A stretch of DNA of 64,000 nt from Gracilariopsis chorda (taxonomy: Eukaryota; Rhodophyta; Florideophyceae; Gracilariales; Gracilariaceae), in NCBI GenBank assembly GCA_003194525.1, contig NBIV01000019.1, positions 186,001-250,000 of the forward strand. The letters run 5' to 3'. Positions within the stretch are counted from its first letter, which is position 1; each line of letters opens with the position of its first letter. This document shows, piece after piece, positions 1 through 64,000 of this stretch. A model generated the notes under the pieces. It was not told the DNA's origin. It searched no databases and was given only the letters and a program-made list of their open reading frames with translations. A program made the position numbers and the translations under genes.

Positions 1-1611
1 ACACCACAGCTAGCTAGATACGCGGCGTAGCGTAGCCAACTAACTGCGGATTGCGCACAGCCTTCTGCTGTACGTGCACAGGTACTGTCAGAGTGAGACA
101 TTAATCCGCTGTGCTTGCGAATAATCAACGTCCCTGCCAATCGCACCAACGGTAACACTTTACTGTACCTTCATACCCGTCCGAATATGAACTCGTCGGA
201 TTGGCCCATTGAGCCTGTAAGCTCTGTTTCTCGCTGACCACTTGCATCCATCGCAGCCTCCAAGAAGCACGCTTAGTTCTGCGCGCGGAATGTTTTTACA
301 ATACGCCTTGTATCTTTACTACGGAGAAAGAAAAGGCACGGCACATGGGCCAAACGATGCCCTAGTGCAACACAACTATCTTATATCTCGTCGCACGTGC
401 TCCAAGCCGCGTTCAAAGCCCGCAAACGGTGTTTACCACGCAAGGACCATGACCATTGGTCATGGTCCTTGCGTGGTAAACACCTCCGTCGCATGCGTCC
501 AGAATCACACGATTCCCTCCTGACGGAATGCGCAATGCGCAATGCACATCATTATCCCTCTGCTGCATATTGCACCGAAGGGTTCATACGTCTATCTACA
601 ATCCGCATGCTTCGCTTGTTGACCGTGGGCGCTGTATCACTTGAAAGCTTTAAGAATCTGCGTTGCTCTCCTCTCCGTCCAAATTCACACTCTGGCACCA
701 AATCTCGTGCTTGCCTGTCGTGACAACGCCGTTCAAACGTTGATGTAAGCATTATTCGCACCAACGCCTGCGGACTTCGAGTGACTCCGAATTGCACGAG
801 ATCTGCGATATAACTTGCTCATCGCACTGTTGGCAGGTGAGACACCAATCATCTGCGACGCACGAACGCCTGAGAAACGATACAAAGAAAGAAGTGATAT
901 CGTATCTAATCAGAGTTGTGCAGAACCAAATCTCAAAATCACGTGCATCGGCGGAGCATGGTACTGTAACCGTTCACCATTCACCGCGTTGTAGTCCGCA
1001 CTCATTCGGTGCGGTGAGATGTTTTCCTCTCTGCCTCATAACTCACTTTTTTTCACATTTCACGGCGTGTAGTGCGCAAAATGGGCCCATTCATATCAAC
1101 TACCATTGATACAGTTATACAATACACATCAACAGGTCATAACTTGGGGTGCGGATTGTGAGGTCCGAGATGGCCCAAAACTGGTGCCCAGCCGCAGGCG
1201 CGGTACCGCATAATACGGTATCTACAGTTACAGTACCAATCTTCCCTGGGAGTGACCCGCAAAAGCACGAGCTCTTCCATGTGACGTGTTTGTCGCATTG
1301 TCGCACGCCAATCAACCGCATGCTACGAATGATTGAGAAAAAAAACAAGAAAAACATATCGAAATCAAAGCACTGACATCGTCATCATCACCGACGGAGT
1401 GTGAGGTAAACTTTTAAGCGTAGTCCGTCCGTCCAGTGATCCTCACTGGTTCGGTGCGATAAACAGGTGCACGTTAAACTCTTCTGCGAGACGACGACGT
1501 GCTTCATGTGTAGCTCTACAGTATGAAGTTACTTCGTAGCCCCAACTGACGCTGCAGGATCTCTTGGTGTATTACGTTAGGTTTTAATTTTAGAATCCTA
1601 TTTGGGTACCC
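1..1611. other. Gene-free stretch left of the composite transposon
   Basis: I find no frame with recognisable protein character here. The open frames are short, overlap on both strands and have no family motifs. The stretch holds one perfect long inverted repeat (listed separately) and small direct repeats around 526-545 (ATGCGCA units). It is probably intergenic DNA or decayed repeat. Confidence 0.6.
428..484. repeat. Perfect 57-bp inverted repeat (28 + 1 + 28)
   Basis: Positions 428-455 are the exact reverse complement of 457-484, with a single T at 456 between them. The arm begins GGTGTTTACCACGC and runs through CAAGGACCATGACCA. I see no target duplication or coding sequence around it. 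It could be a cruciform-forming site, the core of a tiny fold-back element, or a fold-back artefact of sequencing or assembly. Confidence 0.9.
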
Positions 1612-1739
1612 TTAGGCCCTTTCTACACTACCCCAGGACACGGTGCATTTCGTCCAAAATCCCCTTGATCCTGGGGATTTCCCATTTCTTAGGACATGCA
1701 TCGGACACAGGCTCTCCTGTCCAAAATACCCCTGATTTT

Positions 1740-1761
1740 GGGGTCGCTTGAAAGCGACCCC
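1740..1761. repeat. Subterminal hairpin in the Harbinger left end
   Basis: GGGGTCGCTT at 1740-1749 and AAGCGACCCC at 1752-1761 form a perfect 10-bp stem with a 2-nt loop, about 40 bp upstream of the transposase start. Its position suggests a subterminal protein-binding site or promoter element, but no function is shown. Confidence 0.75.
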
Positions 1762-1802
1762 AACTCGTGACCCATGATCATAGCCTCTCCCGTCACCCAA
1801 AC

Positions 1803-3045
1803 ATGACTACCGAACGCCGTCGACACTTGGCCATGGCCATTGCAGCCATTCTAGCAGCCGATGACGATCTCCAAGAGCCCATTGCAGCAGCAATAGTTTC
1901 GTCGACTAACTCAATCGCTCTGCGCCTTTTTTCCACTACTGACAATAGACGTAGCATGCCCGGACGGGCATGGAAGCGGTCCAGAAACACTCCTTCATGG
2001 GTTTTTGACTATGCAGTCACGCAAGATTTTCTTGGAAGCTCATCCTGGCGAAGCCTCTTTTCGCGTTTCCTACACCATATTTCAACGTTTATCAAACGAA
2101 TTGCGTCCTTATATAGAAGCGAACAACACAACATTTCGCAAAGCGTTGCCTGCAGAACTAAAAGTGGCTGCATTTCTTCTTTACGCTGGTGGTTGCACCT
2201 GCGAAAAAGCAGCATCTCATCTTGGAATAAGTTCAAGCACGGTGTCCTTGAGCGTTTCGATGATTTCGAATGCCATCACGAAGAATTACCAAGACTCTGT
2301 TCGATTTCCTACTATGGAGAACGACGTTGCGCTCGCCATGAAAGGCTTTGAGAGCATCAACAGGCTCCCGTTCTGTGTCGGAGCCATAAACGGGACCCAT
2401 ATAAAATGGCTGTCTTGTCCAGAAGAGCAGTTTTACGAATACAGATGTTATAAGGGGTATCCAAGCATCGTTTTATTTGCAGTGGTGACGGCAGATAGGA
2501 AGTTTGTGTATGTGGATATTGGGAAGCCTGGGGTATTAAGACACTCTACTATTTACGAACAGTCAACGTTAAAGAAGAATATAGAGAAGGGTGTTTGGCT
2601 TGGAGCTCAAATTCCGCATCTAAAGATAGCGAATGTATTTGTGAGACCATACTTGATTGGTGATTGTGCTTTCCAGCTAAACAGAAATATGATGAAGACT
2701 TGCAGTGAACCGGAAAAGAACGCTAACCCCGTTTTTCGAACGTGGGATAAGATTGCCAGCAATACGCGGAAGCCGGTGGAATGCGCATTCGGAATGCTAC
2801 AACAACGTTTCTCGGTGTTGAAGGAGGAAATCAAGCTTCACCACGAGAATGATATCGTTTTGTTTACATATGCCTGTGTGGTACTACACAACTGGAGTGT
2901 CGATAGCGGGGATATCACCGAAGCGTACTTGCCTGCCGATGATGATGACGATCCGAATGCTGTAGTAACCGCAGAAACAAGTGCTGGAAAAAAGCAACGA
3001 GATGCACTTCTTTATTACGTTACGAACTCACTTGATGAACAGTAA
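1803..3045 (+). pseudogene. PIF/Harbinger DDE transposase with frameshift and altered catalytic residue
   Basis: This would cut and paste the element as a nuclear DDE_Tnp_4-type nuclease. The main frame (from 2011 to the TAA at 3045) has the Harbinger order: a helix-turn-helix region (GCTCEKAASHLGISSSTVS), the first motif GAINGTHI, the second motif YLIGDCAF and the third motif KPVECAFG. In the frame counted from 2005 these put N129, D220 and E259 at the catalytic positions. The first should be Asp in family members (GxxDGTHI), and AAC here differs from GAC by one G-to-A change, so activity is doubtful. An upstream frame from ATG 1803 encodes a plausible N-terminus (it includes NTPSWVFDYAVTQDFL). 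It meets the main frame near 2030 only by a one-base shift; a short intron is an alternative. The stop lies 6 bp from the convergent Myb-like gene. Confidence 0.85.
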
Positions 3046-3051
3046 GAAGAT

Positions 3052-3777
3052 CTAGATCTTTTCCACCAAACGTTCCAAAACACTGCGCGTTTTCTCCCTT
3101 TCCTCGTTTCCTTTTCTGAGCTCTGAAATCAAACTGGCATTCGTTTCTTCTTGTTTCTGTATAAATGCGGAAAGCAACTCATCTCGAGACATCTTTTGGC
3201 GTTTCCGCGTGCTCGTGGCTGGACGTTCAAGAGCACTGCTACCTTCGTCTGTAGAATATTGTGCCGGAGGATCATATCTTCCCTTGCCCTTCTCCAGTTC
3301 ATGCATTTCTCCAAAGAATTCCGGAGTGTTGAAGAGATCTTCGTCATCTCCATCTCGACCAGACTGTTTCAATTTCGAAATGAAAGAAGAATATTCTTGC
3401 TTGATTCTCGTAAACTTTTTCTGCCATCCTTTGGGAGTGCGTTTGATGCCATGACTTTGCTCAGCTAGCTTGACAGCATCCGAGAAAACGTCTTTCAAAC
3501 TTTTCTTTTGTTGCTTACGATTACCGTACCCAGCTTTTTTCATCATTGAAAGCAATAAAATAACAGTGTCGCTATCGTAATTTGGTTTTGTCGGTGAGTT
3601 GGAATTAGCATCCGCTTCTGCTTCTTTCCCAGTTAGAGCGACAGCATGTTGGTTGACGTGACTACGTTCTGCATTGGGAACGTTGTTGTCGTCAGTAGCC
3701 GTTTGGATGGCCGGAGCAGAGTGCTGGTTGCAAATTACAGGCTGTGGTGGAGCTGAGAATTGAAAATTGTCGGTCAT
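3052..3777 (-). CDS. Harbinger Myb/SANT-like accessory protein
   Basis: PIF/Harbinger elements usually encode a second protein that binds the transposon ends and recruits the transposase. This convergent gene fits that role by position. Its central part has the Myb/SANT-like pattern: a helix-rich YDSDTVILLLSMMKKAG stretch, then a basic run with GIKRTPKGWQKKFTRIKQEY, then SGRDGDDEDLFNTPEFF. The C-terminal 45 residues are charged and heptad-like (RKGNEEREKTRSVLERLVEKI region) and probably form a coiled coil. The ATG at 3777 gives 241 residues. The frame stays open upstream to 3906, but only a GTG lies there, so I chose the ATG. The stop is TAG at 3052-3054. No nonsense codon interrupts it, unlike most frames in this window. 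Confidence 0.72.
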   Translation of the reverse strand: MTDNFQFSAPPQPVICNQHSAPAIQTATDDNNVPNAERSHVNQHAVALTGKEAEADANSNSPTKPNYDSDTVILLLSMMKKAGYGNRKQQKKSLKDVFSDAVKLAEQSHGIKRTPKGWQKKFTRIKQEYSSFISKLKQSGRDGDDEDLFNTPEFFGEMHELEKGKGRYDPPAQYSTDEGSSALERPATSTRKRQKMSRDELLSAFIQKQEETNASLISELRKGNEEREKTRSVLERLVEKI

Positions 3778-3992
3778 TGAAAGAAGAGCTTGCGAAAGAA
3801 CTGCGACGGTACTGGTCTCGAGGTGGGCGTGCGACTTGGAAGAGCTGCTGGCGTGGAGACTGATAATGTCTGGTCGTGTTTCTATACTATGGCGGGAAAT
3901 GGGCACCTTTCTAAAAAATGTCCAAAGGACAATTTCCCGCGAATGAGTGTCTCGGTGTCGAATTGTCCATGTCCATATCCCTAGTGTTCTGT

Positions 3993-4010
3993 GGTTCCAT
4001 ATATGGAACC
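3993..4010. repeat. 18-bp palindrome GGTTCCATATATGGAACC, copy 1
   Basis: A perfect palindrome inside the left end of element B. Near-copies occur at 4046-4063, 7587-7604 and 7791-7808, so two sit on each side of the YqaJ gene. They are probably binding sites for an element-encoded or dimeric host DNA-binding protein. Confidence 0.85.
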
Positions 4011-4045
4011 TTAAATAATTTCGACCAAATGATCAAAATCCTTAT

Positions 4046-4063
4046 GGTTCCATATATAGAACC
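4046..4063. repeat. 18-bp palindrome, copy 2
   Basis: GGTTCCATATATAGAACC differs from copy 1 by one base. It lies 35 bp downstream of copy 1 and about 190 bp upstream of the ATG of the YqaJ-protein gene, in the expected promoter region. Confidence 0.8.
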
Positions 4064-4251
4064 GTAGGACCATTTCCAGCTCAGTTTCAAGAGCAGCAAC
4101 AGCAAACACACGACATACTGCGTATGCCACGTTGCAAGCAGACGAAAAGCTGACAGTGACATGATCGCTTGGAGCTTTCAACTTCTGAAAACGGACGTCG
4201 AGATCACCTGTTATAAACTCGAGAAACATCCGTCTCCCCACACCAGTTGTC

Positions 4252-7200
4252 ATGGCTTCAAATCTTCAGAATGATCCACAGGAGACGGGCTCGGGCGCTC
4301 TCGCCCCAGCAAGCCGTGCTACACAACAGCGAGGACGGGGAAGAGGTAGAGGTCTCGGCCGTGGTCGCCCCCGAGGGCGCGGCAGAGGACGTGGCAGAGG
4401 TCGGGGTGGAGTACAGCGGAATCGAAATCAACGGGATCCTTCTCAAGGTTGGCGAATCTGTAATCCCACAGCCCAAAGATTGTTGCTCGAAGATGTATTC
4501 ATTAGTGAAGCCGTCGAGGAGAGAGCAAGACTGTTCTGTGAATCAGCAGTGGAGAGGCTTGATTTAGAGCTGAACGCTCGTCAGCTTCCTTCTACTAGAG
4601 TTGGACACATAGTCCTACTAATGGATGACATGCTTCGTATGTGTCTGCGATGGATTAATGAATACATAAGTCTGTACCGTAGAGACATGGAACTTCTACG
4701 AATGCACCACCTCTATGGATTTGTCTCCGTACTTCTATTGTCTCATTGCACTGGATTTAGCATGGCGAAAACCATCGACATTTTGCGCGCCGAGGGTGTC
4801 GACCCGCCGCACATTGCTATTGTTCGCTTCATATGTGGAAATATTCTTGCTTTCTCACCTACTGGTCGAGGCCTAGACGGAGGAGGAACTTGGTTGGCAC
4901 AAAGAGACCAAACGCCGCTTTTAACGCAATTGGAGAAGACGGCATTTAGGCAAACCTGCAAAGTGTTCGTGTCACCTAACTACACTTTAGCGACACTCGA
5001 TGATGACTTATACGGAACGAGAGCATCGGACAATCAAGTCAAGTCACTCAGTAATCGGAAGGCTGATAGAGAAGGACACCAGGCAGACGCTATAGCGGAC
5101 TCTCTTTTTCGCGTGACGCTTATGGTTCGATTCCCAAGACGTGGCGAATCTGTTTTCAGCAACGTACGAAATCTGGTTGATGCATTACTAGAGGGACGGG
5201 CTGAGCAAAGTATTCGCGGATTTGTTTTAACAGCAGACCGCGGTTATGGGAAGGTGGCATTGTTACGTGAACTACTTAAACATGGTATTGGGTCTATAAT
5301 GATTATGCCAGATCACCTTCTACAGTGTCATCCGTTTGTCGGACAATCGTATCTAAACGTAATGCGTCATGACTATGAAGAACTGGATGGTGATGAAACA
5401 GACGGCAGTACTGACTCTGACCAAGCCCTGCAACAGGAAGACGATCCCTCTACTAGTGATATTGTCCCTGGACCAACAACGTTCTCAACTGACCGTGCCC
5501 GTACCTTTATTTTAAATGATGAGCCCAGTCAAGGTCCGAAAACATGGTTCGCAGGGAAAACGTTAAAGATTCGAAACCGTGGGGAGAGTCATGCTGTTAA
5601 CAGAGTTAAAGTTACAGCTGTCGCTGTTCGTGAAAGAGGAACAGACAAGTTTAGCCGCATTATCAGATTCATCTACAGTTTACCATCCAGCTTTTCAACC
5701 TTGTTAGAAAGCTGGATTGCTGTACCCAAGTGTACGAGAATGATCGGAACGCTGTTTAGCAAGCGAGATAATACAGGTCGCCTCACGATCCCTCCAAACG
5801 ACTCTACAGAGTTTCAGGACGTAATTGAACGTCACATTCTGGATCACTGTTCTGTGCTAACGCTGGACCAACGATGCGCTGATTGGTTTGTGTTGAGACA
5901 ATTTCGAGTAACTGGTACCAGCGCAGGAAAAATCCTGCATGCTAACGACGCTTTCAGAGAAATGGTTGGTCTAAGCGAACCTACCTGTACAGAACAAACT
6001 TTACAACAATCACTTCTATCTTTCGTGCAGACATGGTTTGGAGGTGGTCGGTCTACAGAACCGATGATGCGTGGTACGGCAAACGAGCCTGCAGTAGTTG
6101 CCTCTTTGAAATCGAAGGCTTTTGTACAAGCATTTTATAGCTGTGGAATGCTGTCAATGAAGGCGAAGCCGTGGCTTGCTTGTTCGCCGGATGGTATAGC
6201 TATAATAGAACTGCTTGACTTGGGACTATGTTCTGAAGAATCTGAGACCGAAAGTACTCAACTGTGCTCAGTTGAAATCAAGACTAATGTCGCGCAGAGC
6301 AGTCTGGACAGGGCTCTTGGTCTAGCCACTGCTGATCTGGTAACATGTGAGGTGGGCGATCAATCATTCCGAAGATACATTCCAGCTGAGCACATTGGTC
6401 AGATTTTGCACCAGATGTTGGTTCTGGCAGTTAACTATGTCATTTACGTTTCATGCTCTGAGTCTGGCATCATGTATACAGTTTTGGTGCATTGCAACAA
6501 TTCAGTACTCGACACCTGCCTTTCTGCGTTGAATGCTATCGCACTGCCAGTGGTATCGTGGGCCCATCAGCCAGGTCCTCTTCAAATACCTTCTTTCAGT
6601 GACACAGAGACCACCAAAGTGCTGCAATCTAGATTTCAATTCTGGTCTTTGGTTAACAACTACGTGACACAGAATGACGCTTTTCCGCCCCTTAAACTAT
6701 TCAAACACGCATCTCAAAGTTTATACTCAAGAACTAAAGGTGGTGTTGATGGGAGTACACAAGCCAGGGCAATTTTAAGGTCATCAACTTCAGCAATGAA
6801 ATGGGAACAAAAGGTGGTAACGCAAACACTCAAAACGTTGTCTGTCAATGCATTCATTTCATGGCGAATGTCTCAGAAGAGAGATTTATTGCAGAGCAAG
6901 GAAACATTCCGAAGCCTTAAATCCTATCGTCAGGCTCTAAATGGAATTCAATCACTGGCTGACTTTGTGCATGATGCATCTAAGGAGCTTATAGTTTATG
7001 CACAATCCTTAGGGACGGAGGACAACGCCGAGACATTGGAAGTACACCAGGACGAAATTCAAAGATTACACACTCTAGCTCGGACTCGAAAGCGGAGACG
7101 CCTTGTCTTCTTTAACGGACCAGACGGAATTTCGTTGAGACTAAATGTGAAGAATCACATTCTAAAGCAACAGAAGGGACAGCAGTACTGCGCGCTCTGT

Positions 7201-7536
7201 GGAATAAGGGGAATTACTGAAAATGAAGAAGGATGGCGTGGACATCGCACAACATACAAATGTCTCCAATGTGATGTATACCTTTGTACTAGAATTTACC
7301 GAGGACTTCGGAAAAGCTGTAGCGAGGTATGGCATTCTCTTAGAGTCCTCAAGCCTAGAAGCACAGCAAAACCGTGCAGTCGGTCTGTGTTTCCAATGCA
7401 TGGTCATGATCAAGTCGGGGACGAGCGAGAAGAAGGCCAATCAGGTCCAAATACTCGCTTAAATACAAGGGTAAGAGAGACAAGAACTGATGAGGAAGAA
7501 GACCTTATCAGGCCGAGACGAAGAGCAAGGACGTAG
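4252..7536 (+). CDS. 1094-aa transposon protein: RGG tail, DDE-like region, YqaJ nuclease, C-terminal Cys cluster
   Basis: The frame is intact over 1094 codons from ATG 4252, which follows the element B terminus and two palindromes. Residues 27-52 are an almost pure RG repeat, a typical nucleic-acid-binding tail. Residues 150-360 look like a DDE-type fold: MHHLYGFVSVLLLSHC helix, ATLDDDLYG around D250-252, and VLTADRGYGK with D329; a third acidic residue is not clear. Residues 385-430 are an acidic linker. Residues 539-680 carry the YqaJ/lambda-exonuclease-like set: LDQRCADWFVLRQFRVTG, GTANEP (E612), CSPDGIAI (D647) and VEIK (E675, K677). Residues 980-1030 have CALC, CLQC and YLC spacings with a following His, resembling the C-terminal Cys-rich domain of piggyBac-type transposases. 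The C-terminus is strongly charged. The nuclease assignment is firm; the DDE reading and the piggyBac likeness are inference. Confidence 0.78.
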   Translation: MASNLQNDPQETGSGALAPASRATQQRGRGRGRGLGRGRPRGRGRGRGRGRGGVQRNRNQRDPSQGWRICNPTAQRLLLEDVFISEAVEERARLFCESAVERLDLELNARQLPSTRVGHIVLLMDDMLRMCLRWINEYISLYRRDMELLRMHHLYGFVSVLLLSHCTGFSMAKTIDILRAEGVDPPHIAIVRFICGNILAFSPTGRGLDGGGTWLAQRDQTPLLTQLEKTAFRQTCKVFVSPNYTLATLDDDLYGTRASDNQVKSLSNRKADREGHQADAIADSLFRVTLMVRFPRRGESVFSNVRNLVDALLEGRAEQSIRGFVLTADRGYGKVALLRELLKHGIGSIMIMPDHLLQCHPFVGQSYLNVMRHDYEELDGDETDGSTDSDQALQQEDDPSTSDIVPGPTTFSTDRARTFILNDEPSQGPKTWFAGKTLKIRNRGESHAVNRVKVTAVAVRERGTDKFSRIIRFIYSLPSSFSTLLESWIAVPKCTRMIGTLFSKRDNTGRLTIPPNDSTEFQDVIERHILDHCSVLTLDQRCADWFVLRQFRVTGTSAGKILHANDAFREMVGLSEPTCTEQTLQQSLLSFVQTWFGGGRSTEPMMRGTANEPAVVASLKSKAFVQAFYSCGMLSMKAKPWLACSPDGIAIIELLDLGLCSEESETESTQLCSVEIKTNVAQSSLDRALGLATADLVTCEVGDQSFRRYIPAEHIGQILHQMLVLAVNYVIYVSCSESGIMYTVLVHCNNSVLDTCLSALNAIALPVVSWAHQPGPLQIPSFSDTETTKVLQSRFQFWSLVNNYVTQNDAFPPLKLFKHASQSLYSRTKGGVDGSTQARAILRSSTSAMKWEQKVVTQTLKTLSVNAFISWRMSQKRDLLQSKETFRSLKSYRQALNGIQSLADFVHDASKELIVYAQSLGTEDNAETLEVHQDEIQRLHTLARTRKRRRLVFFNGPDGISLRLNVKNHILKQQKGQQYCALCGIRGITENEEGWRGHRTTYKCLQCDVYLCTRIYRGLRKSCSEVWHSLRVLKPRSTAKPCSRSVFPMHGHDQVGDEREEGQSGPNTRLNTRVRETRTDEEEDLIRPRRRART

Positions 7537-7557
7537 ACAATATATGTTGGGTGAACC

Positions 7558-7563
7558 AATAAA
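7558..7563 (+). promoter_or_regulatory. Polyadenylation signal AATAAA after the YqaJ gene
   Basis: AATAAA lies 22 bp after the TAG stop (7534-7536), followed by an AT-rich stretch. It is the expected signal position for a short 3' UTR ending inside the element. Confidence 0.5.
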
Positions 7564-7586
7564 CAGTATCATTTTTCAATTTTTTT

Positions 7587-7604
7587 GGTTCTATATATGG
7601 ATCC
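7587..7604. repeat. 18-bp palindrome, copy 3 (degenerate)
   Basis: GGTTCTATATATGGATCC keeps 16 of 18 bases of the consensus and lies about 50 bp beyond the YqaJ gene stop. Confidence 0.7.
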
Positions 7605-7790
7605 TAAGCCAAAAAGACAGTAATGTTTGAACGTGAAGTACACCAACTTCCGCCATCGAGAAAACCCACGGGGAAGGTGTCAATTCTCATTATTTTTGAG
7701 GCGCATTACGAGAGAAGGGTGCTAAGATAGAATCCGAAAGCGTTTATTTGAGGCTCCTATATTTGCTGAGATACGGCACTTCAAACGTTT

Positions 7791-7808
7791 GGTCCCATAT
7801 ATGGAACC
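7791..7808. repeat. 18-bp palindrome, copy 4
   Basis: GGTCCCATATATGGAACC lies 22 bp inside the right terminal repeat. Its spacing to the terminus mirrors copy 1 at the left end of element B. Confidence 0.8.
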
Positions 7809-7830
7809 TTACAATGGCATACTAGGGATA

Positions 7831-7843
7831 TGTAGAAAGGGCC
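7831..7843. repeat. Right terminal inverted repeat of the composite transposon
   Basis: TGTAGAAAGGGCC is the exact reverse complement of 1615-1627 and is followed by the TTA duplication at 7844-7846. Confidence 0.85.
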
Positions 7844-8261: not shown

Positions 8262-8471
8262 GGCCCTTTTTACATATGAACATGGACATGCGTTTTTGGC
8301 ACGGCACCAGGAAAAGAATTCAGAATAATTCATGTTTACTAAGCGAATAACTAAAAAAATCTTATAGAACGATTTCGAAGCGTCTCTTCCGTAAGGTCGC
8401 TCAAAAGGGACCCCTAAATCGTGAACCATGGCAAAATAGATTTTTGTCCATGTCCATATGTAGAAAGGGCC
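8262..8471. mobile_element. 210-bp MITE of the same Harbinger family
   Basis: The left end GGCCCTTTTTACATATGAAC and the right end CATATGTAGAAAGGGCC are inverted over about 28 bp, including the inner CATGGACATG / CATGTCCATG. Left flank is TTA and right flank is TTC, a target duplication with one mismatch. There is no coding capacity. It shares its right inner end with the Harbinger half and its outer 13 bases with both halves of the composite 420 bp away. Confidence 0.8.
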
Positions 8472-8766
8472 TTCAGAACATGACTTCAGTGTAGTGGTGG
8501 ATTACGAGCCAAAATGAACCCCCTCCCTTGTTCGTACGTGTAAGTCACCTTTACGTCACATTGTTAACACCACTTTTGTCTTAGGCTACCCCGAAAAGTG
8601 CCCAAAAGCTGATCAACAAATAATTACTGCCGTCGAAAGCAAATTGAAGAAATCGATTATAATCCGTCATCCATCCAGTACAAAATTTCCCGTATAAGCT
8701 TAGAATACAATACAATGTAACCAAATTTTAATACGAACAAGGGTAAGAAGGGCCTTCAGCACTACC

Positions 8767-9066
8767 ACTCTTTCCTGCAGTTGTAACGTCTGCATCTTGC
8801 CTGCAGGAAAGAGTAGCGCGGCCGGAGCTTGAGCCCTCACAAACCTGAAAACCAAACGTTTTGGTTAAGAAGGGCCTTCGGCCTTAGCACTCTTTCCTGC
8901 AGTTGTGACGTGTGCATCTTGCCTGCAGGAAAGAGTGTTAGCGCCGCCCTGCCACACTTTCCTGCAGTTGTGATGTCTGCATCTTGCCTGCAAGAAAGAG
9001 TGGTAGTGCCGCCCTACCGTTCTTTCCTGCAGTTGTGACGTCTGCATCTTGCCTGCAGGAAAGAGT
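8767..9066. repeat. Four 48-bp hairpin units (CTTTCCTGCAG / CTGCAGGAAAG)
   Basis: Units lie at 8767-8814, 8889-8936, 8954-9001 and 9019-9066. Each has a 14-bp stem (ACTCTTTCCTGCAG or a close variant) around the same 20-nt loop (TTGTGACGTCTGCATCTTGC). Units 1 and 4 are followed by the same roughly 50-bp tail (GAGCTTGAGC ... AAACGTTTTGGTT). The result is a nested tandem and inverted repeat. Confidence 0.88.
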
Positions 9067-9101
9067 GATAGGGCCAGAGCTTGAGCGGTGATAAACCTGA
9101 G

Positions 9102-44870: not shown

Positions 44871-46091
44871 ATGAACAAGAGCGAAAGATTACGAGATGAA
44901 ATCGTGAAGAAAATCCAGTCCATCATGGCATGTAATCCGCCATTAACCCAAGAAATGGAGATGCACATGGAGAAATTGCGAACAATACTTGCCAATCCTG
45001 TTGTCGAGTCTGCTTTCAATGAGGCTATTGCTCGTGTCTACCCACATACCGAAACAGGTGGAGTGAATTACTGGATGTACGCAGATGTTCAACTGCTCGC
45101 ATTGTACTTCAGGTGTTGGTTTACCGATCTGCCGAAGCCAACCAGTGGTTTGGGATACATCCTTCCTTTTTCTTGGCTGTATTTCAACAACAAATCAGGG
45201 TACTACTTTCTTAACCTTTTCAAGAGCTCTTCGTTGGGTCAGTCAGTCATGAGGAGAGAAATTTTCAACTGGACTGTAGAGTTCATTATGATCAGAGGAA
45301 ATTTCATGGATTCAAAAGAGTCTACGACGTATATCGATGACTGGCTACAAGACCCCAGCACTAACATGCAAGATTTTCTGATTCCTCCAGGTGGTTTCCA
45401 AAGCTTCAATGCATTCTTTACTCGTGAACTTAATCCGAACGTCAACGCCCGTCCAATTTCCAATCCAGATGATGACAGCATTGTAACGGCTTCGGCCGAT
45501 ACGATTATTAATCTTATTTTGTCTGATCTTACTCTCAAGACCATGATTAACGTTAAAGGACGACAGATCAGTATGGAGAAACTTTTGGATGGCTCGCAGT
45601 ACGCGAAGAACTTTGTTGGTGGTACGGCCGTTTCCTGCGTTTTGATGCCAAACGTGTATCATCACTATCATTCTCCGGTCAAAGGCATGATTGTAGAAGG
45701 AAAAGATATTCCTGGGATTTACAATGGCATCGTGGACGGAGAGCACTGGTTCAATGATATGTCCAACCCTGGACAGGGTGACACCGATTTCAGCCTTTTC
45801 GAAGAGTTCCATCGTGCGTATTACATCATAGAAACTGAGAAATATGGCCATGTCGCAATGGTACCTGTTGGGCTCAATACAATTAGTAGAATTACCCCGT
45901 CTTTGGTTGGCGAGAAGTCATCGTACGTTTCTCCTGGCGGAGCGCCAGTCCCAGTGGCCAAGGGCGAGAAGCTTGGCTACTTTGCTTATGGAGGCTCTTT
46001 GAATATCTTAATGTTTGAGAAAGACGTGTTCCCATGCGTGTCGCTTCTCATGGGAAACAGGCTTGGACAAATGACTGCAAAAGAGACGTAA
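44871..46091 (+). CDS. Phosphatidylserine decarboxylase-family enzyme (PsiD-like GGS type)
   Basis: Family members are pyruvoyl enzymes that self-cleave at an internal Ser and decarboxylate phosphatidylserine to phosphatidylethanolamine; some branches use amino acids. The 406-codon frame starts at ATG 44871 in good context (CGCCAAGATG). Family marks are GGFQSFNAFFTREL (174-187), ASADTI (207-212), VYHHYHSPVKG (262-272, with the family His), VAMVPVGL (328-335) and the cleavage site YGGSLNILMFEKD with Ser376. Classical enzymes have LGST there. A GGS site is reported for the PsiD-like branch, including the tryptophan decarboxylase of Psilocybe, so phospholipid is not certain as substrate. There is no signal peptide and no N-terminal membrane segment, so it is probably soluble. 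The TAA stop is inside CGTAAGT, which resembles a splice donor; an AATAAA lies 111 bp on. Confidence 0.88.
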   Translation: MNKSERLRDEIVKKIQSIMACNPPLTQEMEMHMEKLRTILANPVVESAFNEAIARVYPHTETGGVNYWMYADVQLLALYFRCWFTDLPKPTSGLGYILPFSWLYFNNKSGYYFLNLFKSSSLGQSVMRREIFNWTVEFIMIRGNFMDSKESTTYIDDWLQDPSTNMQDFLIPPGGFQSFNAFFTRELNPNVNARPISNPDDDSIVTASADTIINLILSDLTLKTMINVKGRQISMEKLLDGSQYAKNFVGGTAVSCVLMPNVYHHYHSPVKGMIVEGKDIPGIYNGIVDGEHWFNDMSNPGQGDTDFSLFEEFHRAYYIIETEKYGHVAMVPVGLNTISRITPSLVGEKSSYVSPGGAPVPVAKGEKLGYFAYGGSLNILMFEKDVFPCVSLLMGNRLGQMTAKET

Positions 46092-61047: not shown

Positions 61048-64000
61048 ATGCAGATACCGCCGTCGATATCAGCATGCAGGCAGCAGAAGAGGGAGTAGTC
61101 GTACGTGGTTACGAAGGAACCCGAAGTGCCACAGTCAGTGCTCCTCACGCAGGTGCTGGGCCTCTACCTGAAGATGCTCCTGGTGGGGGCCAACCATGAT
61201 GAGAACGCTCGTCGTGGATCCGACTGGCCTGTACTGAGTGGACTCTCAAGTACCGCGCTTGGTAGAAGGAACCGTAACAGAAGAGCACGCCGTATTGACT
61301 GGTGGTGCTGCTGCTAATGCTGGAGATGGGGCGACTGCAAATGCCGCAAACAATGCGCAAGTGCGGTACCGCCTTCTAAAACCGGCATCAATACTTGCAG
61401 AGAAAGTCACTTTCCCTCTGCTCTACCCGTACGGCTATCAGCACGAACCGTTTGACATCGGCGTGTTTCTGGAGGCAAAGAACTCAACACAGCAAATCTC
61501 AGGTCTCAGTGTCAACGAGTGGAAGCTCCGAAAGCTCACCGCTGAAAACGCGAAGAGACGACTGTACTCAGACAACATCCTTCTGAACAGTGTACCGTTG
61601 ATGCAGATGTGGATGCTTCGCACCCACACAAAAATTGAGGACATGCGACTGCGTTTCCTGGAAAGAGAACAACGGGCACGCATTATACAAGAGCAAGAAA
61701 TGCAGCAAGCACAACAGCAAACCGGTCACGTGTCACAATCCCAGTTCGTGCGAATGGGACGCATCTTTCTGCCCGATGACTCGGTCAACTCAGCAGCATA
61801 CTGGAAGAACAAGCGCATGGATGTACAGGCGATCGTGGCGCGGAGAGTACCGCCTACTCTGCTCATTACAATCACCATGAACATCTGGCAAGAGGACATC
61901 CAGCGTCTTGGGATGGACACCACCAATCGTGGCGCATTTACGGCACCAAGTAACCGCCCTCGACCGTTTGACCGACCGGATCTGATTGCAAGGGTGTACA
62001 AACAGTACGCAAACGACTTCATGAAGGTCTTGGAGAAGAACTCGGAGCAGATCTTTGGATTGAAGTGCCTGGGTCTTGCATCAAAGCTCGAGTTTCAAGA
62101 GCGCAGTGTGCCTCATCACCACATGCTCGTGTGGCTCGAAGGAGGCGTGATTGAAGACGACGATGTGATCGACGAGCTCACTCGTGCAGAACTTCCCCTT
62201 CCAGGCGAAGACGACGCGTTGCGTGCTCTCATTCGTTCCATGCACAGGCACCACCACTCCATCTATTGCCGGAATCGCGCTGGGCGGTGCAAGTTTGGAT
62301 ACAACAGCAATATGATTGTGCCAGAGACGTACATTGAAGAAGGCACGAATCGCGTTATTTACCGCAGAAGAAGGCAAGAAGACCTCGAGATTGTGCCGTA
62401 TAACCCAACTCTGACCAAGAAGTACCGCTCTAATATCAACGTAGAACGCACGCAAAGAGGGGGCGCAGTGGCTTATCTGATGAAGTACGCGTTTAAGCAG
62501 CCCAAATCTCAGGAGGTGGTACTCAATGTGAGTGATGCTAATGAGACAGGCACACACAACGAGCAGCAACAAGAGCCACAGGTGCAGAACGACATTCTTC
62601 TATACATGCGAGCGCGTGTGGTGGGCGCTGTCAATGCAGCTTGGAGACTTTTCGGGTTTCGACATGTTCACATCGTACCAAAAGTAGAGCGACTGGCCAT
62701 TCACTTGGAAGGAGAGCACACATTTCCGCTGAGAGGTCCAAACCAGCTCTTTTCTGCATCACAGCCGTCTACACTGGAGAGATACTTTGCAAGGCCCGAA
62801 GCATATGCGAACCACGACTACCTTTCGTACTTTGAAAAAGTGTGATTGTATCGCACGCTTAATGCCCGCGTGCTTAACCAATACGACGGAGACAGCACTC
62901 AGGTGCCCACAGACGACTGCGATCCGCCCATGTACGTGGTAGAGCGCACGGACGACGAGCAGTGCGTCGCAAGGATCAGAGGTGTTTCACCGTCGGACAT
63001 TGAGCTCTTTGCTCTGCGCTTGCTGCTCATGAATCACGGCTCGAGCTCTTATGAAGACACAAGGACTTTCAACGGACAGCAGTATGGAACGTATCGTGAA
63101 ACTGCGATTGTAAGCGGACTGCTCGCGGACGGATCCGAGTTTGATATTGCATTCCAAGAAGCAGTGCAGATATACAGCACACCCTCCAAGCTACGACGTC
63201 TGGTTGTCACACTATACCAACAAGGCGCAGACCCAGAAAAAATGGCCGTCGAAAACTGGAAGGCACTATGTAGGGACATATATACAGGAGATGACCAGCA
63301 ACGAAAGCAAGAAATGTACCGACGTGTGGTGGAGATCTCAGACCGGCACGGTGGGCGACTGCTTCGCGATCACAGCTTCTTCTCCCAACACCTACAGCAG
63401 AACCATGCAGCATTGACTGAGGCGAATCGAGCTACATCAACTCGAGACGCGCGAGTGGTGCGAAATTCGTCAACTTCGCAGTCAAGGTACGCCACCTTAA
63501 AACCTCGCCAAAGACAAGTCATTGACACCGTTATTGCCGCATTGCAACAACGACAGGCACTGCAGGAGCGAACAAGCACTCCTGGAAACGTGTTATTTGT
63601 GCAAGGATCCGCAGGAACGGGAAAGACATACGTGCTCAAACTCCTTCGTGATATCGTTGAGTCGGAAGGAATGCTCGCTGAAATGACTGCTACAACAGGC
63701 ATTGCAGCTTCGTTGTACGAAGGTGACCGCACTTTACATAGCCTGCTCGGACTCGGTGTAGGTGATAGGGACAGCACAAGCGGCACTACAGCCACTGTGT
63801 CAAAGTACGGTCCCCGATCTCAACGTGGAGAACTGCTACACGAAATACAACTGCTCGTCTTTTATGAGGCGTCCATGCTCTCACGAAAGCTTTTCGAACT
63901 CATGGATGCGTTGCTCAAAGATCTTCACTGCAGTGGAATGGAAAACCCGCCTCCGTTTGGGGGCTTGACCATCGTTCTATCCGGTGACTACTCCCAGCTG

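What the first reader, a model, noticed from the sequence alone, without database searches (positions are those of the whole stretch)
4252..7536. Transposon protein that joins an RG tail, a DDE-like region, a YqaJ-type nuclease and a Cys-rich end in one chain
Seen: an intact 1094-codon frame inside Harbinger-type termini. It has RG repeats (27-52), D250-252 and D329 in DDE-like contexts, a full YqaJ motif set (E612, D647, E675, K677), and C-x2-C pairs at about 980-1012. Known: Harbinger elements normally encode a transposase and a Myb-like protein only; some ISL2EU-type elements carry a separate YqaJ protein. Inference: this may be a fused transposase and exonuclease of a family not described with this domain order. 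A 5'-3' exonuclease on the same chain could resect ends or process excision products. It is one of the few unbroken frames in the window, so it may be young or under selection.
Basis: partly seen in the sequence, partly recalled or inferred. Interest (0 to 1): 0.82.

Follow-up and report, generated by a model that had tools for sequence, protein, structure and literature searches.

The report
Jumping-gene enzyme with built-in nuclease
A jumping gene in this genome makes one protein in which a phage-type DNA-trimming enzyme appears to sit inside the cutting domain of a piggyBac-like transposase, so a single molecule may both cut the gene out and trim the broken DNA.

Summary
The 1094-codon frame is real and is the only large gene of a 3849-bp DNA transposon (3979-7827). 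It is not Harbinger: its ends are CCCTAGT...ACTAGGG with a 4-bp ATAT duplication (7 of 7 near-identical copies), and it is inserted in the end of a Harbinger element (1615-7843), other copies of which show the empty site. The YqaJ domain is solid (Pfam 2.9e-7, PHROGs 1.5e-9). The transposase part is probably piggyBac-like: weak, co-located matches put D833 on piggyBac D447, and D250, D329, D833 fall within one residue of the catalytic Asp of ordinary piggyBac transposases of this genome, an offset hit by 0, 0 and 1 of 200 shuffles, although the scores themselves are not significant. The nuclease then lies between catalytic Asp 2 and 3, inside the RNase H core. Both active sites are conserved in diverged copies. 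Structure prediction failed, so the fold is unproven. KolobokE, another superfamily, is the nearest precedent. What the nuclease does is inference.

The parts
3979..7827 (+). whole element, 3849 bp, piggyBac-like transposon with internal YqaJ nuclease
   Evidence: same 3846-3849 bp unit with the same ends in 7 copies; six others 99.46-99.74% identical to the window copy
3975..3978 (.). left target duplication ATAT
   Evidence: ATAT on both sides in 7 of 7 copies; single ATAT in empty sites
7828..7831 (.). right target duplication ATAT
3979..3985 (+). left terminal inverted repeat CCCTAGT
   Evidence: inverted repeat I9, 12 of 12 bases with the duplication included
7821..7827 (-). right terminal inverted repeat (ACTAGGG on +)
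3993..4010 (.). perfect 18-bp palindrome GGTTCCATATATGGAACC, bp 15-32 from the left end; possible binding site of the Cys-rich domain dimer (inferred)
   Evidence: the piggyBac CRD dimer binds bp 17-33 (PMC7351741, passages)
4046..4063 (.). second left palindrome, one mismatched pair
7791..7808 (.). right palindrome, one mismatched pair, bp 20-37 from the right end
7587..7604 (.). fourth, more degenerate copy of the palindrome-like repeat
   Evidence: direct repeat family D1 and inverted pair I5
4252..7536 (+). intact ORF, 1094 aa
4330..4410 (+). RG-rich N-terminal tail, residues 27-53
4444..4971 (+). residues 65-240, DDBD1-like region (inferred)
   Evidence: profile alignment, offset 81, to ordinary piggyBac of the same genome
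4972..5331 (+). residues 241-360, first part of the inferred RNase H core, with D250 and D329
5332..5571 (+). residues 361-440, poorly conserved acidic linker (34% identity to L017, pN/pS 0.74)
5848..6447 (+). YqaJ / RecE-like nuclease domain, residues 533-732 (Pfam 544-724), with E612, D647, E675, K677
   Evidence: Pfam, PHROGs, NCBIfam
6724..6951 (+). residues 825-900: candidate third catalytic Asp D833 (YSRTKGGVD) and DDBD2-like region (inferred)
   Evidence: aligned to piggyBac 6x67 residues 438-503; PF13843 positions 303-349
7189..7335 (+). residues 980-1028: Cys-rich domain C980 C983 C1004 C1007 C1012 C1023 H1028
   Evidence: weak zf-Tnp_2 matches in 3 of 37 alignment members, the window protein not among them
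1615..7843 (+). host Harbinger element into which this element inserted; its ORFs at 2005-3045 (+) and 3052-3906 (-)
   Evidence: uninterrupted copies of its end at six other places (one read)

Best explanation
This is a young, autonomous cut-and-paste DNA transposon of a piggyBac-like lineage. Its single protein is a DDD transposase (D250, D329, D833) whose RNase H core is interrupted between the second and third Asp by a YqaJ (lambda-exonuclease/RecE-type) nuclease. Shown at sequence level: the ATAT duplication, CCC...GGG ends, palindromes near the ends, and retention of both sets of active-site residues in diverged copies. Inferred from piggyBac: a pair of Cys-rich domains binds the palindrome, the DDD site cuts at the CCC end, the freed 3' end makes a 4-nt hairpin on the flanking ATAT, the hairpin is reopened and joined to a new ATAT, and the donor keeps complementary ATAT overhangs. 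Inferred only: the nuclease, placed beside the active site and so next to flanking or target DNA, acts on DNA ends made by the same protein, most likely resecting donor ends 5' to 3' and steering repair to homologous recombination, which would restore the element at the donor (about 0.4 within this model).
For: YqaJ: Pfam 2.9e-7, PHROGs RecE-like 1.5e-9, NCBIfam lambda-exonuclease 2.7e-4 (below its cut-off). piggyBac core: phmmer places YSRTKGGVD833 on YNQTKGGVD447 of 6x67 (E about 0.3); window, L018 and L021 match the same end, positions 303-349, of PF13843 with E 0.045, 0.0024, 0.014; zf-Tnp_2 matches 3 of 37 members, best 0.0095. Register: profile alignments put D250, D329, D833 one residue from D330, on D420 and on D542 of ordinary piggyBac transposases of this genome; 0, 0 and 1 of 200 column shuffles give these offsets as top alignment, 0, 0 of 208 and 1 of 209 counting lower-ranked ones (D329 rests on the second-ranked real alignment). 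D250-D329 is 79 residues; piggyBac D268-D346 is 78. Ends: ATAT on both sides in 7 of 7 copies; all 9 exact 16-base left ends in the genome follow ATAT, 2 one-mismatch matches do not; 4 of 10 diverged loci show both ends with ATAT, 4 one end, 2 none. Empty sites with one ATAT at six Harbinger copies and for L019. Palindromes at bp 15-32 left and 20-37 right of the window element (any such palindrome in 25 and 21 of 500 mononucleotide shuffles); ordinary piggyBac-like elements of the genome have them within bp 12-62, at both ends in 5 of 5. Conservation, near-identical loci collapsed (14 loci, those with a residue there counted): D250 9/10, D329 10/12, D833 10/12, E612 10/10, D647 11/11, E675 11/12; K677 15/15 uncollapsed. 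A second intact frame, L017, is 46.5% identical over 999 aligned codons.
Against: No piggyBac match reaches a curated cut-off (best 17.7 vs 22.4 bits), and in the window protein AAA_16 (0.0092) and PAS_8 (0.02), surely chance, have better E-values than PF13843 (0.045). L017 has no PF13843 match and nothing in PDB at E<=1, and its YqaJ score is below gathering. The family profile finds nothing in PDB at E<=10. Profile scores as such are unconvincing: N part reached by 2 of 200 shuffles, C part by 142 of 200; hhalign gave probability 0.5%; against the second group (L052) the N part is four residues off and the C part is elsewhere; family HMM segments do not beat shuffles, with the C1 hit on L052 elsewhere and on L053 five residues off. 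The target is ATAT, not TTAA. Both AlphaFold models are unusable. In L016/L017/L019 palindromes lie at bp 63-94 of the left end only; L023 has none. No assay of the nuclease exists.
Confidence: 0.7

Rival explanations
1. [quoted passage not shown]
For: KolobokE has a transposase plus lambda-exonuclease-like nuclease (PMC9587614, passages); D250 and D329 lie before the YqaJ domain; PF13843 evidence is weak.
Against: No well-conserved acidic residue between 331 and 540 (best 7 of 11); no [CD]xxH motif between D329 and D833 of the window protein; 5'-CCC ends and ATAT target rather than RR and TTAA; D833 aligned to piggyBac D447.
Confidence: 0.14
2. Nested architecture as above, but the nuclease works at integration or hairpin opening (trimming hairpins or flaps at the transposon end or target) rather than on donor ends.
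For: Its place corresponds to the edge of piggyBac's insertion domain, which contacts the hairpin and target (V414, L416, Y439, N440; PMC7351741, passages).
Against: In piggyBac the transposase itself opens the hairpin (same passages); duplications here are clean 4 bp in 7 of 7 copies, so no trimming trace is seen.
Confidence: 0.22
3. Nested architecture, but the YqaJ domain is a structural, DNA-binding insert whose catalysis is not needed.
For: Lambda-type exonucleases act as ring trimers, hard to fit inside a transposase dimer (recalled knowledge).
Against: Nuclease residues are at least as conserved as the DDD residues; pN/pS of the domain, 0.48, equals the whole-protein value, with pS saturated.
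Confidence: 0.15
4. Harbinger or ISL2EU-type element.
For: It lies between Harbinger ends; ISL2EU elements encode a YqaJ protein (PMC4482050, passages).
Against: The Harbinger ends belong to an outer element with its own transposase and Myb-like ORF, other copies of which lack the insertion; no DDE_Tnp_4 match; 4-bp ATAT duplication; one chain instead of two ORFs.
Confidence: 0.02

Closest known systems
piggyBac superfamily (T. ni piggyBac transposase, PDB 6x67/6x68; Pfam PF13843 + PF13842)
   Same: three Asp in matching register, YNQTKGGVD-like third motif, C-terminal Cys-rich domain, CCC-type ends (CCCT is the most prevalent start in beetle piggyBac elements, PMC12732532, passages), palindromic 4-bp duplication, palindrome near the end
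   Different: ATAT target instead of TTAA; 504 residues between Asp 2 and Asp 3 (101 in piggyBac from D346/D447, 122 in L026) holding a YqaJ nuclease; RG-rich N-terminal tail; PF13843 cut-off not reached
KolobokE (Kolobok superfamily with a lambda-exonuclease-like nuclease)
ISL2EU
   Same: DNA transposon with a YqaJ domain
   Different: YqaJ is in a separate ORF beside a Harbinger-related transposase (PMC4482050, passages)
Ordinary piggyBac-like elements of the same genome (L025-L032)
   Same: piggyBac DDD transposase, Cys-rich C-terminus, palindromes near both ends (5 of 5 tested)
   Different: CTAG on both sides in 6 of 7 elements whose ends were printed (L031 not; L029 not resolved), TGTCTAT ends, no YqaJ match at these places; PF13843 found directly (E down to 5.9e-51)
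Phage RecE / YqaJ exonucleases (PF09588, phrog_434)
   Same: nuclease domain with E, D and E-x-K residues
   Different: phage recombination exonucleases (as the families are annotated), not part of a transposase

Membership tests
piggyBac superfamily | transposase matches PF13843 above its gathering score | tested here: not met
   best 17.7 bits vs 22.4 (L018), 13.5 for the window protein
piggyBac superfamily | DDD triad in piggyBac register | tested here: met
   three Asp within one residue of those of ordinary piggyBac; 0, 0, 1 of 200 shuffles; D833 on D447 of 6x67. Alignment scores themselves not significant; register against L052 not exact
piggyBac superfamily | TTAA target duplication | tested here: not met
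   ATAT in 7 of 7 copies. PF13843-positive elements of the same genome use CTAG, so TTAA is not universal among relatives
piggyBac superfamily | CCC-type ends, short inverted repeats, palindromes near the ends | tested here: met
   for the window element (palindrome elsewhere in L016/L017/L019, absent in L023)
piggyBac superfamily | C-terminal Cys-rich cross-brace zinc domain | tested here: inconclusive
   seven Cys/His present; zf-Tnp_2 only weak, 3 of 37 members, below cut-off
piggyBac superfamily | RNase H fold with insertion domain | tested here: inconclusive
   models of mean pLDDT 35.4 and 42.4
piggyBac superfamily | seamless excision through hairpin intermediates | not testable with these tools
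   needs an excision assay
YqaJ / lambda-exonuclease family | PF09588 above gathering score and E, D, E-x-K residues | tested here: met
   window protein 31.3 vs 22 bits; residues conserved. Diverged copies L016, L017, L019, L020 score 16.5-21.5, below the cut-off
Kolobok / KolobokE | TTAA duplication, 5'-RR ends | tested here: not met
   ATAT, 5'-CCC
Kolobok / KolobokE | [CD]xxH between second D and last acidic residue | tested here: not met
   none in 330-833 of the window protein
PIF/Harbinger | DDE_Tnp_4-type transposase with 3-bp duplication | tested here: not met
   no DDE_Tnp_4 hit at E<=1; 4-bp duplication
ISL2EU | separate YqaJ ORF beside a DDE/THAP transposase | tested here: not met
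   a single 1094-aa frame carries the YqaJ domain and the transposase region

The most novel reading that the evidence does not exclude
A piggyBac-like lineage in which a phage-type 5'-3' exonuclease has been threaded through the transposase catalytic fold, so that one active complex excises the element and resects the donor ends, sending repair to homologous recombination and turning cut-and-paste movement into net duplication.
Probability: 0.25. Interest if true: 0.87.

Novelty: new variant of a known kind. Interest (0 to 1): 0.63.

Why it matters
Some DDE/D transposases carry insertion domains, but a second nuclease, with its active site kept, inside the RNase H core of a piggyBac-like enzyme would be new to my knowledge. 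It would make testable how a transposon influences repair of the break it leaves. With the ATAT and CTAG targets seen in one genome, it also offers a natural series for working out how piggyBac-like enzymes choose a 4-bp palindromic target: the residue aligned with piggyBac N440, which contacts the target-derived hairpin, is Ser (S826) here.

Tried and rejected
Relatives elsewhere: viral contigs with the protein and with A4 and genome contigs with A4 found no relative; these are viral and prokaryote collections, so this says little about distribution in eukaryotes. Family profile against PDB: none; L017 against PDB: none. Family HMM segments against ordinary piggyBac of the genome: not above shuffles. 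Empty site for the C18 copy (L009): matches stop at the junction, inconclusive. A possible nuclease-free lineage (contigs 64, 193, 215, 56: only about residues 20-390 matched) was followed at C64 (L062), which looks like a broken copy running into a Tc1/mariner-like frame (judged by eye); rejected as evidence of an ancestral state. An inverted copy of the RG tail that I first thought I saw in L062 is only the antisense reading of the tail itself. Selection among the young copies: private changes show no clear constraint (2 synonymous and 2 replacement in the window copy, 0 and 6 in L009), and L015/L016/L019 against L017 have dN about equal to dS; so the frame is young rather than demonstrably selected since insertion. 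Between lineages pN/pS is 0.48, but pS is saturated. PMC3985635 (passages) does not mention piggyBac or YqaJ. One search timed out without output and was replaced; one search stopped on an error after part of its output and was completed.
Full report
Observation. The frame 4252-7536 is open for 1094 codons. Pfam gives YqaJ at residues 544-724 (E 2.9e-7, 31.3 bits vs gathering 22); PHROGs gives a RecE-like exonuclease at 533-732 (1.5e-9); NCBIfam gives a lambda-exonuclease family match (2.7e-4, 21.1 bits, below its cut-off). The nuclease domain of the window protein is therefore secure. In diverged copies L016, L017, L019 and L020 the Pfam score is below the cut-off (E 0.0034, 0.011, 0.0035, 0.00031); PHROGs still sees it in L017 (9.4e-5).

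Boundaries. The element runs from 3979 to 7827 (3849 bp). All seven near-identical copies (window and L009-L014) have the same first and last 14 bases and ATAT on both sides; the six others are 99.46-99.74% identical to the window copy. All nine exact matches of the first 16 bases in the genome follow ATAT; two one-mismatch matches do not, and the backward control of the 16-base pattern gave one match. The site without the element, with one ATAT, is present as 28 of 28 bases at window 8446-8473 and, at 99-100% over query 1 to 91-94 with the junction at 75-78, at six other places (one, L046, was read). These are ends of a Harbinger family. The window copy of that Harbinger element is 1615-7843, with 13-bp inverted ends and TTA on both sides, a DDE_Tnp_4 transposase (1.7e-20) and a Myb-like ORF (0.001, below cut-off).

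Relatives in the genome. The protein query gave 51 matches, a lower bound because 42 of 149 candidates were scored. Seven loci are the young copies; 2 of the 7 have an uninterrupted frame (window and L009), four have 1, 1, 1 and 4 premature stops, and L014 is frameshifted. The other matches are 27-53% identical in protein. L017 is a second intact frame (1101 aa; 46.5% identity over 999 aligned codons). Of ten diverged loci whose ends I looked for, L016, L017, L019 and L023 show ATAT|CCCTA...TAGGG|ATAT, L015, L018, L022 and L024 show one such end, and L020 and L021 show none among the printed candidates. L019 sits in the ATAT at the centre of a palindrome in the end of an ordinary piggyBac-like element; the same palindrome without insertion, with one ATAT, is seen in L030.

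What the transposase is. The direct evidence is weak match by match but consistent. (a) phmmer aligns residues 824-887 with residues 438-503 of the piggyBac transposase 6x67 (E about 0.3), placing D833 on D447, a catalytic Asp according to PMC7351741 (passages read); L017 gives no PDB match at E<=1 and the family profile none at E<=10. (b) PF13843 is matched at its last 45 or so positions by three loci (E 0.045, 0.0024, 0.014), each time at the GGVD motif; 3 of 37 scanned alignment members match. None reaches the cut-off, and the window protein has chance-level matches of similar size to unrelated families (AAA_16 0.0092, PAS_8 0.02). (c) PF13842, the DDE_Tnp_1-like zinc finger, is matched by 3 of 37, best 0.0095, at the Cys-rich end. 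(d) Family profiles were aligned with profiles of ordinary piggyBac transposases of the same genome. By score the N part is reached by 2 of 200 column shuffles and the C part by 142 of 200. By position, the real alignments put D250 one residue from D330, D329 on D420 (second-ranked alignment) and D833 on D542, whereas 0, 0 and 1 of 200 shuffles fall within one residue of those offsets. In columns of the second ordinary group (L052) the N part lies four residues off and the C part elsewhere; plain HMM searches did not beat shuffles. (e) Between 331 and 540 the best-conserved acidic residue is 7 of 11, while D833 is 10 of 12, like D329. (f) D250 to D329 is 79 residues, D268 to D346 in piggyBac 78; R257 stands seven residues after D250 as R275 does after D268, and is kept in 11 of 14 loci; R275 contacts the hairpin (PMC7351741, passages).

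DNA ends. The window element has a perfect 18-bp palindrome at bp 15-32 from its left end, another with one mismatched pair at 68-85, and one with one mismatched pair at bp 20-37 from its right end; 25 and 21 of 500 mononucleotide shuffles of these 120-bp ends give any such palindrome. Five of five ordinary piggyBac-like elements tested have palindromes within bp 12-62 at both ends. In T. ni piggyBac the Cys-rich domain dimer binds a palindromic repeat at bp 17-33. Against this, L016, L017 and L019 have theirs at bp 63-94 of the left end only, and L023 none.

Architecture. If D833 is the third catalytic residue, the YqaJ domain lies inside the RNase H core, between D329 and D833 (504 residues apart here, 122 in L026, 101 in piggyBac). 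The order is RG tail, DDBD1-like region, core part with D250 and D329, acidic linker, YqaJ, D833, DDBD2-like region, Cys-rich domain. Both sets of active-site residues are kept in diverged, mostly broken copies: with near-identical loci collapsed, D250 9/10, D329 10/12, D833 10/12, E612 10/10, D647 11/11, E675 11/12, and K677 15/15 in the uncollapsed table. Window against L017 has pN/pS 0.38 in both core parts, 0.48 in YqaJ and 0.74 in the linker, with pS saturated.

Mechanism. Excision and insertion probably follow piggyBac, because the palindromic 4-bp duplication, the ends, the palindromes and the DDD register agree; this is inferred. Y825 and S826 align with piggyBac Y439 and N440, which touch the hairpin; the change from Asn to Ser may belong to the change from TTAA to ATAT. 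The role of the nuclease is a proposal: it stands where piggyBac's insertion domain lines the target channel, so its natural substrates are flanking donor ends, hairpins or target ends. Donor-end resection is my first choice because lambda-type exonucleases digest 5' ends (recalled) and the piggyBac pathway leaves 4-nt overhangs, by my reading 5' ones, at the donor; I put about 0.4 on this within the model.

Known kinds. A search for piggyBac with YqaJ gave three papers. Passages were read in two, PMC13289751 and PMC7826175, and describe no such fusion; the third, PMC11403445, was seen in the listing only. DDE_Tnp_1_7 with YqaJ gave none. The other searches showed no such architecture in the listed titles and abstract openings. 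KolobokE (PMC9587614, passages) is the nearest functional precedent, in another superfamily and with the nuclease downstream. Repbase and eukaryote genomes could not be searched, so a described copy elsewhere cannot be excluded. I file it as a new variant of a known kind: it probably works like piggyBac, but the TTAA and PF13843-score tests were not met, so I call it piggyBac-like rather than a piggyBac member. After checking against the calls I lowered confidence from 0.72 to 0.70 (and interest from 0.64 to 0.63), because the L052 register is not exact and L017 gives no piggyBac match.

Noticed in passing
window 1615-7843: A Harbinger element with transposase (2005-3045) and Myb-like ORF (3052-3906, minus) that was interrupted 12 bp from its end by the studied element; uninterrupted near-identical ends occur at six other places in the genome.
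   Followed up: yes
L025-L028, L030, L032 (same genome): Ordinary piggyBac-like transposons of this genome duplicate CTAG rather than TTAA (6 of 7 elements with printed ends) and have TGTCTAT ends with CTCATATGAG-type palindromes.
   Followed up: partly
L061, L062, L063, L064 (contigs 56, 64, 193, 215): A set of 89-97% identical copies in which only about residues 20-390 of the protein were matched; perhaps an amplified truncated derivative.
   Followed up: partly
L019 (contig 130): This relative inserted at the centre of a palindrome in the end of an ordinary piggyBac-like element, the kind of site its own Cys-rich domain might bind.
   Followed up: partly
window 8771-9070: Four similar units in the same orientation (starts 8771, 8893, 8958, 9023), each with inverted ends that could fold back.
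   Followed up: no
window 428-484: Perfect inverted repeat with 28-base arms and a one-base spacer.
   Followed up: no
window 44871-46091 and 61238-62845: A phosphatidylserine decarboxylase-like frame (Pfam 2.1e-35) and a frame with a Helitron-like N-terminal domain (7.4e-24).
   Followed up: no
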